Origin: Actinocatenispora sera
GTDB taxonomy: Bacteria > Actinomycetota > Actinomycetes > Mycobacteriales > Micromonosporaceae
Assembly (NCBI RefSeq): GCF_018324685.1
Contig: NZ_AP023354.1
Coordinates: 6,468,426-6,532,425, forward strand
Direction: 5' to 3'
Length of the DNA: 64,000 bases
Shown here: in pieces, positions 21,357 through 27,001 of the stretch
Numbering within the stretch: position 1 is the stretch's first letter
Layout: every line of letters begins with the position of its first letter
Position numbers and translations under genes: made by a program
The notes under the pieces: generated by a model
What the model was told of the DNA's origin: nothing
Database searches by the model: none
What the model saw: the letters and a program-made list of their open reading frames with translations, nothing else

Positions 21357-21565
21357 AGGGGTACTCCTCGGCAGGTGATCGGGTGCTTAACCACGGCGGT
21401 CTGGTGTTCTGGACGTGCGCCCACGCGGGCAGACCCGCCGCTGACCGACCGAGTCTAGGCGAGCGCCACGGAACGCAAGGACTCGGGCGCCCGACCGGCC
21501 GGATGGCACGACGCCACCAAGCGTACGCCGGACCCACCGTCCCCCCGGCGCCGCCTCATGCCTGC

Positions 21566-21841
21566 TCAGGCGGCCGGGGTCGCGTGCAGGTCGATGAAGG
21601 TGAACGGCGGCTCCGCACCCGGCCGGTAGACCACCACGGTCACCGGCGACTCCGGCCGCACCGGGCCGACCCGGTCCAGGATCGACGACAGCGACTCCTC
21701 GGCCAGCGCGAGTACCAGGTGGCTGCCGGCGCGGAACGTGACCGACCGGGCCAAACACCGAAACATCGGGTCCCGCAGCCGGCTCGCGAACTCCCGCGCG
21801 GCCCGCCAGGCCACCACCTCAGAAACCCCTGCACCGCTCAT
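21566..21841 (-). CDS. Hypothetical protein, 91 residues
   Basis: This small soluble protein has no recognised domain. It begins MSGAGVSEVVAWRAAREFASRL and ends with a beta-rich part (VTVVVYRPGAEPPFTFIDLHA). ATG 21841 is chosen over an upstream in-frame start at 21904 because the extra residues look non-coding. It lies upstream of tig on the same strand with a 209-bp gap that should hold the tig promoter. The codon pattern supports a real gene. Confidence 0.55.
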   Translation of the reverse strand: MSGAGVSEVVAWRAAREFASRLRDPMFRCLARSVTFRAGSHLVLALAEESLSSILDRVGPVRPESPVTVVVYRPGAEPPFTFIDLHATPAA

Positions 21842-22036
21842 CGTGTACCCATCGTGGCGCGGCCGCGGGCGCCAGGACACCGGCCGCCCGTCCCACCAGC
21901 GCACGCCGTTGGGTCAGCCCCAACAACCCGAACCACCGACCCGACGCCTCGCCCGGCCCCTGACCTGAACCGGGCCGTCCCCGGACACGACACGACCCCG
22001 GCCGCACGATCGCGGGCCGGGGTCGGGGTCACCGGG

Positions 22037-22110
22037 TCGGGGTGGCGGGATTTGAACCCACGGCCCCTCGCTCCCAAAGCGAGTGCGCTACCAAACTGCG
22101 CCACACCCCG
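22037..22110 (-). tRNA. tRNA-Pro, anticodon TGG
   Basis: Read on the minus strand, the acceptor CGGGGTG pairs with CACCCCG. The D arm GGCGCAGTTTGGTAGCGC, the anticodon stem-loop with loop TTTGGGA (anticodon TGG) and the T arm GTGGGTTCAAATCCC all fold normally. The length is 74 nt with discriminator A. CCA is not encoded. Confidence 0.95.
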
Positions 22111-22216
22111 GGTGCCTGCGACAGTGTAGGCCGTCGGTCCGCCGAGCCGCGCACACTGCCCCGCCGCTCCCTATGTACCCTGATGCGGCAGGCCCCGTAC
22201 CGCCGGGGTCGGCGTC

Positions 22217-22290
22217 GCGGGTGTAGCTCAATGGCAGAGCCCCAGCCTTCCAAGCTGGTCATGCGGGTTCGATTCCCGTCACCCGCTCCA
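22217..22290 (+). tRNA. tRNA-Gly, anticodon TCC, with encoded CCA
   Basis: The acceptor GCGGGTG (22217-22223) pairs with CACCCGC (22280-22286). The D arm, the anticodon loop CTTCCAA (anticodon TCC) and the T arm GCGGGTTCGATTCCCGT are normal. The discriminator is T at 22287 and CCA is encoded at 22288-22290. The 3' half is repeated in diverged form at 24747-24787, marking this gene as the probable target of an integrated element. Confidence 0.95.
22249..22289. repeat. Left end of element: tRNA-Gly 3' half (att-like)
   Basis: This 41-nt segment runs from the anticodon loop to the CC of the tRNA tail. It matches 34 of 41 positions without gaps at 24747-24787, with the last 20 (CGATTCCCGTCACCCGCTCC) identical. 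Confidence 0.7.
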
Positions 22291-22338
22291 CTGTCCCGGA
22301 CCAGGTCACAGGGTGTTTCAGACCTGGACCAACAACCA

Positions 22339-22690
22339 TCAGGCACCCTTCTTCTTCCGGCCGTGCCCCTTACGTGCCCGACCGACGCCCTCCCCACCGG
22401 GTAGAGCGGTGGAAGTTCCCGCGTCGGAGCGGTGCGCCGTGGGCGCCCGTGAAGACCGGCGCGTCCGGGTCGGTAGCGGTGAACTCGTAGACCAGTTGCC
22501 CACCGGCCTGTTCGACGGTGGCGGCGGGACACCCACGAGTGTTCTCCTGGACCGCCTTTTGACCCGGCAGGGGAGCAGTGGATCAGTTCGTCATCCACGG
22601 CGGTGTTCAGGACGGCACGCAGCAGGCGGTACGCCTTGGCAGCCGTGGTCGCAGAGACGCCACGGGAGAGTAGATGGGCCCGTCAGGCAC
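22339..22690 (-). pseudogene. Tyrosine integrase remnant
   Basis: Reading leftward from 22690, typical actinobacterial phage/ICE integrase sequence appears: LLSRGVSATTAAKAYRLL, then RAVLNTAVDDELI. A frameshift and an internal deletion follow, after which TVEQ runs into DPDAPVFTGAHGAPLRR and GNFHRSTRW in another frame. The tail RARKGHGRKKKGA with its stop at 22339 lies in a third frame. The catalytic Arg, His-x-x-Arg and Tyr boxes are gone, so it cannot be active. It lies 50 bp from the tRNA-Gly 3' end, the usual place for an integrase beside its attachment site. Confidence 0.7.
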
Positions 22691-23171
22691 AGGATGGGCG
22701 GGCGCCGGCGGTTCGGGCACGCGCCTGGCCCCGCTCCGCTGTCGCTACGCGACTGGACGCTCAAGGCCCGCAGCCGGCGCGCACGAAAAGGCGGACCGCC
22801 GAACCCGGAGTCTCACCGAGATCAACGACCCGCGTCGGGTCTGCTCACTACCGACCGCACACAGTGGCCCGGGGGCTCCGGCCAGGCCGGCGGTCTGCTG
22901 GTGGCCGGGTGGTCACTGCCACGCCGGGGGACGCGGGGCACGCCCCGGTCGCCGGACGGGCCACCGGGAGGCGCCGCCCCAGGCACAGCCGAGCAGGCTG
23001 CCGCCGGGAGGGGCATGGCGATGACGGGATGGCTCCCGGCTCATATTGTCCGTAAGGGATAACCGGCCTAGCAGCACGTCCGTGCCGGTCCCACCGAGCC
23101 GGGTCCGTGATCGTGCAGCAACTTTCCGGCGGCACACTTTCCGCACGAACTCCAGACGGGGGACCGGTCGA
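22691..23171. other. 480-bp region without recognisable gene
   Basis: This lies inside the putative element, between the integrase fossil and a small membrane-protein gene. No frame shows a domain or a sustained coding pattern. The last part (from about 23035) is AT-richer and may contain the promoter of the gene at 23172. Confidence 0.4.
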
Positions 23172-23387
23172 ATGAGTGGATTTAGCGAAATCAACCTATT
23201 CACGCTGGCCCTTGTCTTCGGCTGTGCCGTGATACCGGTACTCATCGTCGGATCACTGGTGCTGTGCCAGGCGCGCGGATCGTCAAGAGGTGCGCGCTGG
23301 GCGCTGCCGGCCCTCATCATCCTCGGCGCAGTGGTGAGCGTCATGTGGCTGTTGGACCTCCTGCTCGTAATAGCAAATCCGATCTGA
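23172..23387 (+). CDS. Small two-helix membrane protein, 71 residues
   Basis: The protein begins MSGFSEINLFTLALVFG and has two hydrophobic helices (about residues 8-32 and 43-68) joined by a short basic loop, CQARGSSRGARW. The sequence resembles small actinobacterial membrane proteins of unknown role. Its base composition is less GC-biased than neighbours, in line with an accessory origin. An ATG in front of a complete two-helix unit is the best start. It sits inside the tRNA-Gly-bounded segment. Confidence 0.55.
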   Translation: MSGFSEINLFTLALVFGCAVIPVLIVGSLVLCQARGSSRGARWALPALIILGAVVSVMWLLDLLLVIANPI

Positions 23388-23537
23388 TGAGCAGGCCGAT
23401 GTGACCGTCGTGCAAGCAGTTGGTTCCTCAAGACCATGCCCCGCACGTGCCCGAGGCTGTAGCCAACAGGGGTCAATTCCAAGCCCTCTGGGTGGCGGTC
23501 CTCGTGCTGGCGGTTCGACGGCCCCGGGGTGCGCCTG

Positions 23538-23930
23538 TCAGGTACGCTTCTCCAGCGCTACCGGGGCTCGGGTCATCCCCGGGATGAGGACGGCCGCGAG
23601 GCCGAGGTGCATGAGCGCCAGGCTGGTTCGCGTCGCGGTTGCCATGGGACCGGTCAGCAGGACGAACGATCCCGCGAGCGTGACCAGCGCGGCAACGGTC
23701 CACACCGTACGGCCGTGTCGGGTGAGACGTTCCAGAGCCGCCAGCAGCGCCCACCCGGCCAGAGCCGCGGCGAGTGCGAGCACGATGACGGTGCCGACGC
23801 GGATCTCCAGCGATGGTGGCCCTTCGACCCGAAGCCGGTGGCCGAGCAGCGGCACGGTCACGATCCAGACGAATACCGGCACCGCCACGGCGGCGATGAC
23901 CACGCTGCCGCGGATGGCGGCCCGTCTCAC
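23538..23930 (-). CDS. DUF6069-like four-helix membrane protein
   Basis: This 130-residue integral membrane protein has four predicted helices (about 8-28, 46-66, 77-97 and 103-123). The pattern AAALAGWALLAALERLT, the Arg-x-x-TVWTVAALV helix start and the final MHLGLAAVLIPGM fit the DUF6069 family of actinobacterial membrane proteins, which are often found beside TetR regulators. Its start overlaps the end of the TetR gene by 4 bp, so the two form an operon controlled by that repressor. The transport or stress role is not known. Confidence 0.72.
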   Translation of the reverse strand: MRRAAIRGSVVIAAVAVPVFVWIVTVPLLGHRLRVEGPPSLEIRVGTVIVLALAAALAGWALLAALERLTRHGRTVWTVAALVTLAGSFVLLTGPMATATRTSLALMHLGLAAVLIPGMTRAPVALEKRT

Positions 23931-24517
23931 GAGGGCTCCGCGAGCGCGCCGTGCAGGAACACCGCCACCAGGTCGCCGGTCGACAGTGGAGTACGAGGCC
24001 GGGCGAACAGCAGTCCGAGGAACACCGCGGCCGCCTGGTCCCGGGGTACCCGGAGGGGCGGGGCGTCGTCGCCGAACAGGTCGGTGATCGCCTCCCGGAT
24101 GGCGGCGACGGACTGCTCCCGGCTGTCGGCGGGCGGGCGTTCGGCCCGACTGCGGTGACCGGAACCGAGCAGCGCCCCGGCGACGGCGCCCATCCGGTCG
24201 AGGTGGGCGTCGAGCGCGTCGGCGGCTCCGGTGAGCCGATCGGCCAGTGGCAGATCGGTGGGAATCGACGCGATCTCGCGGACGGCGTGGTCGGGCCGCA
24301 CCGCTTCGGCCATGCAGGCATCCAGCAACTCGTTCTTGTCGGCGAACGCGCGGAAGATGGTGCCCTCGCCGATGCCGGCAGCGCGGGCAACCTGTCCGGT
24401 CGTGACCTTCGCGCCGTGCTCGGCAACGAGGGGCAGCGCGGCCGCGATGATCATCACGCGGCGTTGTTCGGGACTCATCCCCGGGGCGCGGCGCCGGGTC
24501 TCCTTCGGTGGTGTCAT
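23927..24517 (-). CDS. TetR family transcriptional regulator
   Basis: This 196-residue repressor has its HTH at about residues 15-60 (RRVMIIAAALPLVAEHG, then VARAAGIGEGTIFRAFADKNELL) and a helical effector domain. ATG 24517 is chosen because it starts the family sequence just downstream of two perfect operators. A TTGACG box followed by 17 bp of operator and TACGGT looks like its own promoter, so it should be autoregulated. It is cotranscribed with the DUF6069 gene behind it. Confidence 0.88.
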   Translation of the reverse strand: MTPPKETRRRAPGMSPEQRRVMIIAAALPLVAEHGAKVTTGQVARAAGIGEGTIFRAFADKNELLDACMAEAVRPDHAVREIASIPTDLPLADRLTGAADALDAHLDRMGAVAGALLGSGHRSRAERPPADSREQSVAAIREAITDLFGDDAPPLRVPRDQAAAVFLGLLFARPRTPLSTGDLVAVFLHGALAEPS

Positions 24518-24530
24518 GACGACCACCGTA

Positions 24531-24576
24531 CGGAGTGAGTACTCACTCCGTCAAGATTGGAGTGAGTACTCACTCC
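24531..24576. promoter_or_regulatory. Two identical TetR operators (GGAGTGAGTACTCACTCC)
   Basis: A perfect 20-bp palindrome at 24531-24550 and a perfect 18-bp palindrome at 24559-24576 share the same core, with centres 27 bp apart. The first fills the spacer between a TTGACG -35-like box and a TACGGT -10-like box reading toward the TetR gene. Confidence 0.85.
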
Positions 24577-24746
24577 ACGACGTGATGCTCCGCCGAGAGC
24601 CGGGCCGCGGCACGCCGGAGACGCGCCGGAGCTCCGTACCACCGCAACACCACCCCGTCCGCGCCGGGGCGGTGCAGGCCAGTCAAGATGGCCCACCGGG
24701 GGTGAATGCCCGAGCCCGCGGGATGATCATCAGATCGGGAGCTCCG

Positions 24747-24787
24747 TCCAAGCCGGCGGTACGAGTCCGATTCCCGTCACCCGCTCC
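24747..24787. repeat. Right end of element: diverged tRNA-Gly 3' half (att-like)
   Basis: This is a 41-nt copy of the tRNA-Gly 3' half (34 of 41 identical, last 20 exact). It is not part of a full tRNA because the 5' half is missing. It has the form expected for the far end of an element integrated into the tRNA gene. Confidence 0.65.
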
Positions 24788-24872
24788 CCGGGGCCCGGCC
24801 GAGGCCAGCCACTCCGCCACGTTCGGGTACGGTGGCGCGAGCGTCGCGTGTCGGTGGCAGGCCGTGCCAGGC

Positions 24873-24959
24873 ATGGAGGCGTGGGATCCGAAGGAGTACG
24901 ACGATGATGACGTCGTTCCCTTCGCCCTCACATGGCTGAGGGCGAGAAGACCAGGCTGA
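24873..24959 (+). CDS. Possible leader peptide overlapping the hemerythrin start
   Basis: A 28-residue frame from ATG 24873 encodes MEAWDPKEYDDDDVV and a hydrophobic-basic end. It overlaps the hemerythrin ATG by 28 bases in another frame. A 9-bp stem (24922-24930 with 24937-24945) puts that ATG into a 6-nt loop. Translation of the leader could open the stem. This is proposed from sequence only. Confidence 0.3.
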   Translation: MEAWDPKEYDDDDVVPFALTWLRARRPG

Positions 24960-25402
24960 TCGCCTGGAGCACCGAACTGCGAGCCGTGCACCAGCGGCTG
25001 CGCGAGGCGCTACGAGTCACCCGCGCGGCACTGGATGGCGGGGCCGCGAACGATCCGATCGCACCCGACCTGCTGCTGTTCTGCCACGGCTTCTGCACCG
25101 CGCTGACCGGCCACCATCAGGGTGAGGACCGCGAACTGTTCCCGGCCATCGCGGCCGCTCATCCGGAACTTCGCGAGACGCTGCGGAAGCTGACCCACGA
25201 TCACACGATGATCGGCCAGCTGATGGCCGACCTGCAGGCGGCGGTCGAACGGGATGGCTCGCCGGCCGCTCTCCGGCGGCACCTCGAGGGGATCGCCGCC
25301 ATCATGGAGTCGCACTTCCGGTACGAGGAGCGCCAGCTGCTCGCGGTCCTCGAATCGCTGGCGCTGGACGCCGACCCGCACGACGTCCTCGGGCCCCTCT
25401 GA
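24932..25402 (+). CDS. Hemerythrin HHE-domain protein
   Basis: This 156-residue four-helix protein of the HHE cation-binding family likely holds a di-iron centre for oxygen, nitric oxide or redox sensing. Candidate ligands are spaced as in the family: His20 (AVHQRL), His61/His62 and Glu65 (GHHQGEDRELFP), His89/His91 (THDHTMIG), His128 and Glu132 (SHFRYEERQ). It lacks a clear ribosome site, and its start codon lies in the loop of a small hairpin overlapping a leader frame. It is just outside the tRNA-Gly-bounded segment. Confidence 0.85.
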   Translation: MAEGEKTRLIAWSTELRAVHQRLREALRVTRAALDGGAANDPIAPDLLLFCHGFCTALTGHHQGEDRELFPAIAAAHPELRETLRKLTHDHTMIGQLMADLQAAVERDGSPAALRRHLEGIAAIMESHFRYEERQLLAVLESLALDADPHDVLGPL

Positions 25403-25447
25403 CCTCGGTCCGCGACCGCGTCACGGCCCTGCAGCCGGTCGGCACGG

Positions 25448-25930
25448 TCAGTGCTGCACGAGGCCGCCGACCGGAACCGGCGGAACGTGGCCGTCGGCGG
25501 GGCGCGTACGGGCCAGTGCGAGGCCGACGTCGACGAGCGACGAGCGGCGCAGGGCGACGACGTCGGGGATCGGCGTCCAGACCGACTCGGAGGCCTCACC
25601 GTTCGGCTCCGGTCGCAGCGTGTCGCCGGTGATCCCGACCTGGTAGAAGACGCCCACGTTCTGGTGCTCCGAACCGCGCCGGCTCTCGGCGGCCGGGATC
25701 ACCCTGCACGCCGGGTACGCGGCCAGCCGGAAACCGCCCCCCACCTCCGATGAGGTTCGTAGCCGTCGCTCCGGACACCGAACACGCTCACCGTACGGCG
25801 GGGTCGAGCGCCTGGTCACCGACCGTTCCGCCGGCAGCTCGGCGAGCCGGAGAACACGGTGTCGGCGGGCGGCGTGCAGGGTCGGCGGTACCGCCCGGCC
25901 ATCGGTTCGACGTCGAGACCGTGCCGGTCG
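25448..25930 (-). pseudogene. Nudix hydrolase remnant
   Basis: The last 70 codons read like the end of a Nudix protein (NVGVFYQVGITGDTLRPE, then ASESVWTPIPDV, then LRRSSLVDVGLALAR). Upstream, GLDVEPMAGRYRRP (the part after the Nudix box) appears in a different frame before a stop, and the Nudix box itself is absent. The gene therefore looks 5'-truncated and frameshifted. It lies directly behind the CPT-like kinase gene. Confidence 0.45.
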
Positions 25931-25941
25931 GTCCAAGGCGC

Positions 25942-26544
25942 TCAGGCAAGCCGCGGAAAGGCCGACCCGGGCCCTTCTTCGATCCGGCGTTCGATCAGAT
26001 CGGCGCACTCGGCCGGGCTGGACACCGACGTGTCGACCTCGAGGTCGTAGTGCCCGGGGTCGTGGACCGCCCGCTGCCACAGGCCGACCGGATCGGCCAC
26101 CGAACCGAGGCGTTGATAGCCGACGCCACCCCAGGTGGCTCGCCGGCGTTGCAGGAGCACTTCTCGGGGGCAGCGAACTCCGACGAAGAAGACCGGCAGG
26201 CCGTGCAGGCGTCGGGCGCACCGGGACAGGATGTTGCGCGGTACCGAATAGCTGTCGTGATGGACGGCGTCGACGACGACGTTGAGGCCGAGCCGGCTGT
26301 GCGCCGCGATCGACTCGTACATCGCGTCGTACAGCGTCACGATCAGCGGTTCGAGGTCGGGCCGCTCAGCACCCGGGCGCAGGCCGATGGCCGGTTGCCA
26401 CCGCTGGGGTGCCATGTGCTTGAACCGATCGACGCCGAGGTTCATCCAGACCCCGGCGAACCGATCCTGAATGGCTGCCGCGATGCTCGACTTCCCCGAA
26501 CGCGGCGGACCGTTCAGGATGACGATGCGACCTGTCTCTTCCAC
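25942..26544 (-). CDS. Chloramphenicol phosphotransferase-like P-loop kinase
   Basis: This 200-residue P-loop protein has Walker A GPPRSGKSS at about residues 11-19, followed by the Asp of NLGVDRF and the VVVDAVHHD and FFVGVRCPREVL segments typical of the CPT-like family. Such proteins phosphorylate small hydroxylated substrates; resistance to chloramphenicol cannot be assumed. The GTG start at 26544 has a near-perfect AGGAGG six bases upstream, while a longer in-frame extension to 26853 lacks one. Confidence 0.78.
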   Translation of the reverse strand: MEETGRIVILNGPPRSGKSSIAAAIQDRFAGVWMNLGVDRFKHMAPQRWQPAIGLRPGAERPDLEPLIVTLYDAMYESIAAHSRLGLNVVVDAVHHDSYSVPRNILSRCARRLHGLPVFFVGVRCPREVLLQRRRATWGGVGYQRLGSVADPVGLWQRAVHDPGHYDLEVDTSVSSPAECADLIERRIEEGPGSAFPRLA

Positions 26545-26794
26545 GAGTCCTCCTGCGATCCAGAGTGGACCGGACCGGGCTCGGTCCGGGGCTGTTCCCG
26601 AGCGGCGAAACGGTGGTCGGCTCGGTGCTGCCGGCGGCATGCGGGTCGTCGGGGCGGGCTTGGGCCGCATCGTCGTTTCGGGGCGTTCGCTCGCGGGTAG
26701 AAAACGTTCAGATCGTTGAAATGTCGTCCAAACGGCAAGGCAGCGGTCACGCGTCGGCGACGCGAGGTCGCCGGCACAGGACGTTGGAGGCGAC

Positions 26795-27001
26795 GTGCGC
26801 ATCGGACGCATCGGCATCGTCGTGGTACTCGTCTGGCTCATCATCGGCGCCATCGCCGCGGCCCAGCGCGGCTACTTCGGCAGTCCGAAGGCACACTGCG
26901 GGACGGTCGGCAGCACCGTCGTGACGATCATCGCCGGCCCGCTCAACTATCTCGGCGTCAACCCGAAGATCAGCTGCCACGTCCCGCAACCCGCGAAGTA
27001 G
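26795..27001 (+). CDS. Small exported or membrane protein, 68 residues
   Basis: This short protein begins with a hydrophobic helix (MRIGRIGIVVVLVWLIIGAI) and then a polar part containing two cysteines (KAHCGTV and PKISCHVP) that could pair outside the membrane. The ending is NYLGVNPKISCHVPQPAK. The GTG start has GGAGG six bases upstream, strong support for translation. It is divergent from the CPT-like gene. The layout is shared with a widespread class of small actinobacterial secreted peptides of unknown role. Confidence 0.68.
   Translation: MRIGRIGIVVVLVWLIIGAIAAAQRGYFGSPKAHCGTVGSTVVTIIAGPLNYLGVNPKISCHVPQPAK

What the first reader, a model, noticed from the sequence alone, without database searches (positions are those of the whole stretch)
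22217..24787. Decayed integrative element bounded by tRNA-Gly and a diverged copy of its 3' half
Seen: tRNA-Gly at 22217-22290; an integrase fossil 50 bp beyond it on the opposite strand; and a 41-nt ungapped copy (34/41, last 20 identical) of the tRNA 3' half at 24747-24787 without a 5' half. Known: actinomycete integrative elements insert at tRNA 3' ends with an adjacent integrase. Inferred: the 2.5 kb between is what remains of such an element, now carrying a TetR-DUF6069 operon and a two-helix membrane protein.
Basis: partly seen in the sequence, partly recalled or inferred. Interest (0 to 1): 0.72.

Follow-up and report, generated by a model that had tools for sequence, protein, structure and literature searches.

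The report
Decayed conjugative element at tRNA-Gly
A 2.5-kb stretch of a soil actinomycete chromosome is the wreck of a mobile element that once inserted into a glycine tRNA gene, and it still holds a worn copy of a conserved folded segment that intact elements of the same kind carry.

Summary
Confirmed, and ordinary in kind. tRNA-Gly(TCC) lies at 22217-22290 and its 3' half recurs at 24747-24787 (34/41; best of 50 shuffled windows 26). Between them, on the minus strand, are pieces of a tyrosine integrase of the family found beside tRNA-Gly genes. In same-genus genome G001 (Actinocatenispora comari) the same site holds a 14.1-kb AICE with intact reading frames (Int, RepSA, FtsK-like Tra), ending in a 46-nt exact copy of the tRNA end and followed by the window's right flank. 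So 22291-24787 is an AICE remnant.

Unexpected: 22698-23035 is a decayed copy of a ~520-nt noncoding element, detected in 85 of 150 Micromonosporaceae genomes and lying near AICE genes in 16 of 20 fetched loci against 1 of 20 controls. In good copies its 160-nt end folds into a covarying rod, also found in pMR2 and in another family; no Rfam family reached its cut-off there. It may be a single-strand origin, a transfer locus or an RNA. An exact empty site was not found; whether TetR-DUF6069 was cargo is open.

The parts
22217..22290 (+). tRNA-Gly(TCC), attachment site; its 3' end is reconstituted at the integrase side
22298..22330 (.). terminator-like inverted repeat behind the integrase fossil; the same kind of repeat stands at the AICE in L034 (far att copy) and at G001's integrase end
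   Evidence: sequence; 74% DNA identity 22250-22380 to L034
22342..22389 (-). probable C-terminal tail of the integrase, ending in a stop codon
   Evidence: tail resembles that next to the far att copy in L034; by eye
22394..22540 (-). integrase piece, about residues 277-324 of the L034 integrase
22542..22682 (-). integrase piece, SAM-like part, about residues 148-195 of the L034 integrase, in another frame
22698..23035 (+). decayed copy of a ~520-nt noncoding element of AICEs (rod domain on the minus strand, broken here)
   Evidence: R1 only 10.3 bits, E 1.6 over it
23172..23384 (+). 71-aa membrane-like ORF, nearly private to this genome
23538..23930 (-). DUF6069 gene
   Evidence: PF19545 E 6e-23
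23927..24526 (-). TetR-family regulator gene, overlapping the DUF6069 gene
   Evidence: PF00440 E 4e-11
24532..24576 (.). two identical 18-bp palindromes directly before TetR, a likely operator (inferred)
24723..24743 (+). element side of the att copy, shared with the right end of the AICE in G001
   Evidence: (alignment 24723-25406 at 87%)
24747..24787 (+). att copy (tRNA-Gly 3' half, 34/41)
24788..25406 (+). right flank with hemerythrin gene (24932-25402), also beside the att copy in G001

Best explanation
[quoted passage not shown] Site-specific recombination left the tRNA intact on the integrase side and a copy of its 3' end at the far side (24747-24787). The element then decayed: the N-terminal third, an inner part and the catalytic C-terminal part of the integrase are gone, and no replication or transfer gene was found. 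What remains is the integrase-side end, a worn copy of the element's conserved noncoding segment in the usual orientation, the far att copy, and a TetR-DUF6069 pair plus a small membrane ORF of uncertain origin. Shown: att pair, integrase pieces, a full AICE at the same site with the same right flank in G001, the noncoding segment. Inferred: that a deletion joined about integrase codon 131 to about position 47 of the noncoding segment (junction 22683-22697), and that the window's element and G001's were relatives.
For: att copy 34/41 against 26 in shuffles; integrase pieces colinear and of the tRNA-Gly integrase family; G001 carries Int-RepSA-FtsK between tRNA-Gly and an exact 46-nt att copy 14.1 kb away, then the same flank at 87%, and pieces of the noncoding segment 0.7-1.2 kb inside that att copy in the window's orientation; an integrase of this family stands beside tRNA-Gly in 8 of the 29 relatives whose locus was returned (4 look intact, 4 are fragments); 22698-23035 matches the AICE-linked segment.
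Against: No RepSA match in the window and no FtsK-like ORF among those scanned, so the label AICE rests on the integrase family, the site and the noncoding segment. No exact empty site. The att copy differs at 7 of its first 21 positions while G001's is exact. The rod of the noncoding copy is not recognisable to the model.
Confidence: 0.92

Rival explanations
1. Accretion: the two att sequences bracket leftovers of two or more different elements (an old one owning the far att copy, a later one owning the integrase and the noncoding segment), with TetR-DUF6069 acquired separately.
For: The att copy is much more diverged than the tRNA; DUF6069's best relatives are in other genera (49% or less) and in 4 of 19 loci the pair TetR-DUF6069 stands away from any tRNA or integrase; accretion of AICEs and remnants at one tRNA is reported (PMC9513070, passages).
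Against: Order and orientation (integrase minus, noncoding segment plus, att copy) fit one element as in G001.
Confidence: 0.35
2. Not an element: a tRNA-Gly tandem duplication that lost its 5' half, with a chance integrase likeness.
For: The copy lacks the att perfection seen in G001.
Against: Integrase score 47 bits against 26 in 200 shuffles; full AICE at the same site in G001 with the same right flank.
Confidence: 0.03
3. The remnant is of a prophage or a non-conjugative integrative element, not of an AICE.
For: No RepSA or Tra left in the window.
Against: Closest integrases sit in AICEs with RepSA and FtsK (L031, L034), and the noncoding segment is AICE-linked.
Confidence: 0.08

Closest known systems
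AICEs (pSAM2, pMR2, pACPL kind) and their remnants at tRNA genes
   Same: tRNA 3' end as site, direct repeats, integrase beside the tRNA; AICE remnants lacking tra or rep are in print (PMC3218068 and PMC9513070, passages seen)
   Different: Window copy has lost replication, transfer and a working integrase; it keeps a worn noncoding segment and two or three unrelated genes
AICE at tRNA-Gly in Actinocatenispora comari (G001, L031)
   Same: Same tRNA gene, same right flank, integrase of the same family, far att copy, pieces of the same noncoding segment
   Different: 14.1 kb, with Int, RepSA and FtsK frames intact; window 2.5 kb
AICE at tRNA-Gly(CCC) in the same genome (L034)
   Same: Integrase family, hairpin and tail beside the far att copy (74% over 131 nt)
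   Different: Other tRNA gene, intact, and no match to the noncoding segment or to R1
Single-strand origins (sso, sti) and clt loci of rolling-circle actinomycete plasmids, recalled; for the rod only
   Same: Noncoding, hairpin-rich, fixed orientation to the replication and transfer genes
   Different: No sequence link to a tested sso or clt was found; a clt for pSAM2 is said not to be described (PMC9513070, passage)

Membership tests
AICE (intact element) | Integration at a tRNA 3' end with flanking att repeats | tested here: met
   G001
AICE (intact element) | Complete tyrosine integrase | tested here: not met
   Only pieces; the stretches that hold the catalytic R, HxxR and Y motifs in intact relatives are missing (motif names recalled)
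AICE (intact element) | RepSA-type (or other) replication initiator | tested here: not met
   None of the 16 RepSA matches in the genome lies in the window; RepAM and RepPP types not tested
AICE (intact element) | FtsK/SpoIIIE-like Tra | tested here: not met
   No such Pfam match among the ORFs of 22293-24526 scanned; no separate six-frame Tra search of the window
AICE remnant at tRNA | Same site occupied by a full AICE with the same flank in a relative | tested here: met
   G001
AICE remnant at tRNA | Exact empty site in a relative | tested here: inconclusive
   G003 has no element but another right flank; G002's contig is rearranged there
sso / clt (noncoding segment) | Conserved, structured, fixed orientation to rep and tra | tested here: met
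sso / clt (noncoding segment) | Needed for second-strand synthesis or for transfer | not testable with these tools
   needs bench work
Rfam family (noncoding segment) | Match above a family's gathering score | tested here: not met
   (7 loci); only sub-threshold matches in the segment (ar45 16.2 bits, cut-off 40)

The most novel reading that the evidence does not exclude
The window remnant preserves a fossil of an apparently undescribed structured cis element (or noncoding RNA) of actinomycete AICEs: a ~520-nt segment with a 160-nt covarying rod, placed just inside the att end opposite the integrase, always on the strand of the tra-rep-int genes, and shared by elements of Micromonosporaceae and Streptomyces. 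It would be the elements' single-strand origin or the missing transfer locus (clt), or an RNA that controls them.
Probability: 0.5. Interest if true: 0.7.

Novelty: new member of a known kind. Interest (0 to 1): 0.42.

Why it matters
As a remnant it shows that the tig-tRNA-Pro-tRNA-Gly locus is a recurrent AICE site in Micromonosporaceae, with intact and dead elements side by side. The worn noncoding segment matters more: it led to a conserved structured segment of AICEs that marks even dead elements and gives a concrete, testable candidate for their unidentified cis-acting replication or transfer locus.

Tried and rejected
Rfam search of 21500-26500: only the two tRNAs above threshold. Idea that the repeat 22698-23035 is coding: stops occur in each of the six frames in most of 23 copies, dropped. 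Idea that it is an IS or MITE: ends are sharp in Actinocatenispora, but the fixed place and orientation beside AICE genes fit an element part better; not excluded, since two Streptomyces plasmid loci (L190, L191) and two loci of genome G331 (L216, L217) carry the rod without AICE genes in the stretch seen. G002 as an empty site: contig rearranged (tRNA pair and recQ inverted against tig). Model R1 on the window: 93 matches at E up to 10, the best unrelated hairpins at 16.8 kb (23.0 bits); the segment itself only 10.3 bits, E 1.6, so the fold is lost here. Strand preference of the fold is mixed: rod better on the minus strand in 23 of 23 copies, 5' unit in 21 of 23, middle hairpin better on the plus strand in 23 of 23, whole length better on the plus strand in 15 of 23. 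My first script printed one misregistered comparison of the att copies (13/41) before the scan gave 33 of 41 in a register one base off; one search has the right register.

Literature: passages only of PMC3218068, PMC3364876 and PMC9513070; all other papers seen as listings. That the rod is undescribed rests on those listings and on Rfam, not on subscription papers.

Full report
WHERE. The window is G000:C1:6468426-6532425 of a 7.04-Mb single-contig genome. A same-genus genome, G001, has a contig of the same number and length (101,059) as NZ_BOPO01000037.1 of Actinocatenispora comari NUM-2625, so the genus is taken to be Actinocatenispora, Micromonosporaceae. The species of the window was not established.

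OBSERVATION. tRNA-Gly(TCC) is at 22217-22290. 24747-24787 repeats its 3' half: 34 of 41, the 7 differences all in the first 21 positions. Fifty shuffled windows reach at most 26. On the minus strand 22542-22682 and 22394-22540 match residues 148-195 and 277-324 of a 413-aa integrase (56% and 43%; E 2e-11 and 5e-9), in different frames and in the right order. A Mutator-type transposase used as a negative control reached E 0.008 at best and an unrelated AICE integrase 0.002. The hairpin and C-terminal tail at 22291-22389 resemble those beside the far att copy of another AICE (L034). The parts of intact relatives that hold SLR-GE, HDLRH and the YQH tyrosine lie outside the two pieces; that these are the catalytic motifs is recalled.

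COMPARISON WITH RELATIVES. The genus sample has 4 genomes. In G001 the DNA left of and through tRNA-Gly matches the window at 91-94%, then 14.1 kb of foreign DNA follow, then an exact 46-nt copy of the tRNA end and 692 aligned bases at 87% that begin 24 bases before the att copy of the window and run through the hemerythrin gene. The 14 kb encode an integrase (PF00589), RepSA (PF20199, E 1e-93), an FtsK/SpoIIIE protein and a DUF5753 regulator: an AICE. G003 has the tRNA-Gly, but in 17.4 kb beyond it no att copy above 23 of 42 and no integrase, hemerythrin, TetR or DUF6069 at E 1e-3; its flank up to ArsR-recQ differs, so it is not an exact empty site. G002's contig is rearranged at this place.

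A RECURRENT SITE. The tRNA-Pro/tRNA-Gly pair matched in 122 of 150 family genomes at E 1e-20; the 30 best loci (the window and 29 others) were returned. In 8 of these 29 an integrase of this family stands beside tRNA-Gly: L069 (G001), L075, L091 and L095 with long open frames, L071, L074, L087 and L089 as fragments or frame-shifted. L071 has only 239 bases beyond the tRNA. Loci were chosen by match score, so 8 of 29 is not a frequency estimate.

GENES INSIDE. DUF6069 relatives occur in 75 of 150 family genomes; those in the genus are 38-41% identical and elsewhere, the best of all (49%) in another genus. TetR stands beside DUF6069 in 4 of 19 loci looked at, none with a tRNA or a family integrase in the locus. 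The 71-aa ORF has one weak match (E 9e-4) besides itself. These genes are accessory, but that does not prove that the AICE brought them.

THE NONCODING SEGMENT. 22698-23035 resembles several other places of the genus. Aligned, these form a sharply bounded segment of about 520 nt. With one good copy (L008) as query, 85 of 150 family genomes and 28 of 44 genera have a match at E 1e-6; many are partial and the list was cut. I fetched 20 loci with long matches, one per genome (3 cut short by contig ends), and 20 stretches, most a million or more bases away, from 12 of those genomes. Rep, FtsK or Int profiles hit in 16 of 20 against 1 of 20; tRNAs were seen in 10 against 3 (one of the 10 lies inside an FtsK frame and is doubtful). 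In all 14 loci with Rep or FtsK these genes lie on the strand opposite to the segment's plus orientation. The window obeys the same polarity: integrase minus, segment plus. In G001 pieces of the segment lie 0.7-1.2 kb inside the far att copy, though the rod model finds nothing there.

STRUCTURE. On the minus strand the 3' end of the segment forms a 160-nt rod. Over 23 copies and 78 pairs (rod plus 5' unit), 98.0% of cells pair; 13 pairs and 50 cells change on both sides, against 3-4 pairs and 3-6 cells when partners are slid. The structure was derived from the same alignment, which favours it; the sequences are related. The rod's consensus energy is -93.5 on this strand and -48.3 on the other; the 5' unit shows no such preference there (-41.0 and -42.2). 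A covariance model of the rod (R1) found 7 of 296 genomes of a phylum sample, five of them in one genus of another family, and, independent of its training set, the AICE plasmid pMR2 of Micromonospora rosaria (115 bits, E 1e-21). pMR2's stem differs in sequence over much of its length but folds into a near-perfect hairpin (-120.7 kcal/mol). There the rod follows integrase and a tRNA-end-like stretch within 0.3 kb. Streptomyces plasmids carry it too. In the window's own genome 8 of 10 rods lie within 13 kb of a RepSA gene and 8 of 10 RepSA loci have a rod within 13 kb; the AICE in L034 has none. In 8 of 10 fetched rod regions Rep and Int (and FtsK in 7) lie on the rod's strand (in L221 one further Rep-profile hit lies antisense); the two others, both from genome G331, show none of these genes.

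MECHANISM. Most likely an AICE integrated at the tRNA 3' end, restored the tRNA from its own att site, and was then disabled; the junction at 22683-22697 suggests one deletion from the integrase gene into the noncoding segment, removing replication and transfer genes. The loss of all change-free selection on the far att copy explains its divergence, although its uneven mismatches (7 in 21, 0 in 20) may instead mean that the older att site matched the tRNA only over its end. For the rod, position beside the att end, one orientation and strand-specific folding fit a single-strand origin or clt as well as an RNA; these tools cannot decide.

KNOWN OR NEW. AICE remnants and accretion at tRNA genes are known (passages of PMC3218068 and PMC9513070). 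The remnant is a new member of that kind. The rod has no Rfam match above threshold in the seven loci tested and I met no description of it in the listings and passages seen; [quoted passage not shown]

Noticed in passing
22698-23035; L008:1118-1636: Decayed copy of a ~520-nt AICE-linked noncoding segment with a covarying 160-nt rod, also in pMR2 and Streptomyces plasmids; not in Rfam.
   Followed up: yes
G000:C1 about 3883000-3962000 (L218, L219): Five RepSA loci spaced by about 16 kb, three with the same score, each with a rod: probably a tandem array of AICEs.
   Followed up: partly
L034 (G000:C1:1043000-1062000): AICE at tRNA-Gly(CCC); beyond its far att copy stand a hairpin and an integrase-like C-terminal tail, then a Mutator-family transposase: an older element probably lies next to it.
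   Followed up: partly
L033 (G002:C49): tRNA-Pro/tRNA-Gly and recQ are inverted relative to tig compared with the window; rearrangement or assembly error.
   Followed up: no
24532-24576: Two identical 18-bp palindromes directly before TetR, a likely operator.
   Followed up: no
25945-26853: Chloramphenicol phosphotransferase-like (PF07931) gene in the right flank, on the minus strand; only its first 59 residues' DNA has a match in the G001 stretch.
   Followed up: no
L064:11177-11512: Integrase fragment near tRNA-Asn with a GNAT gene and a good rod: another AICE remnant in the genus.
   Followed up: partly
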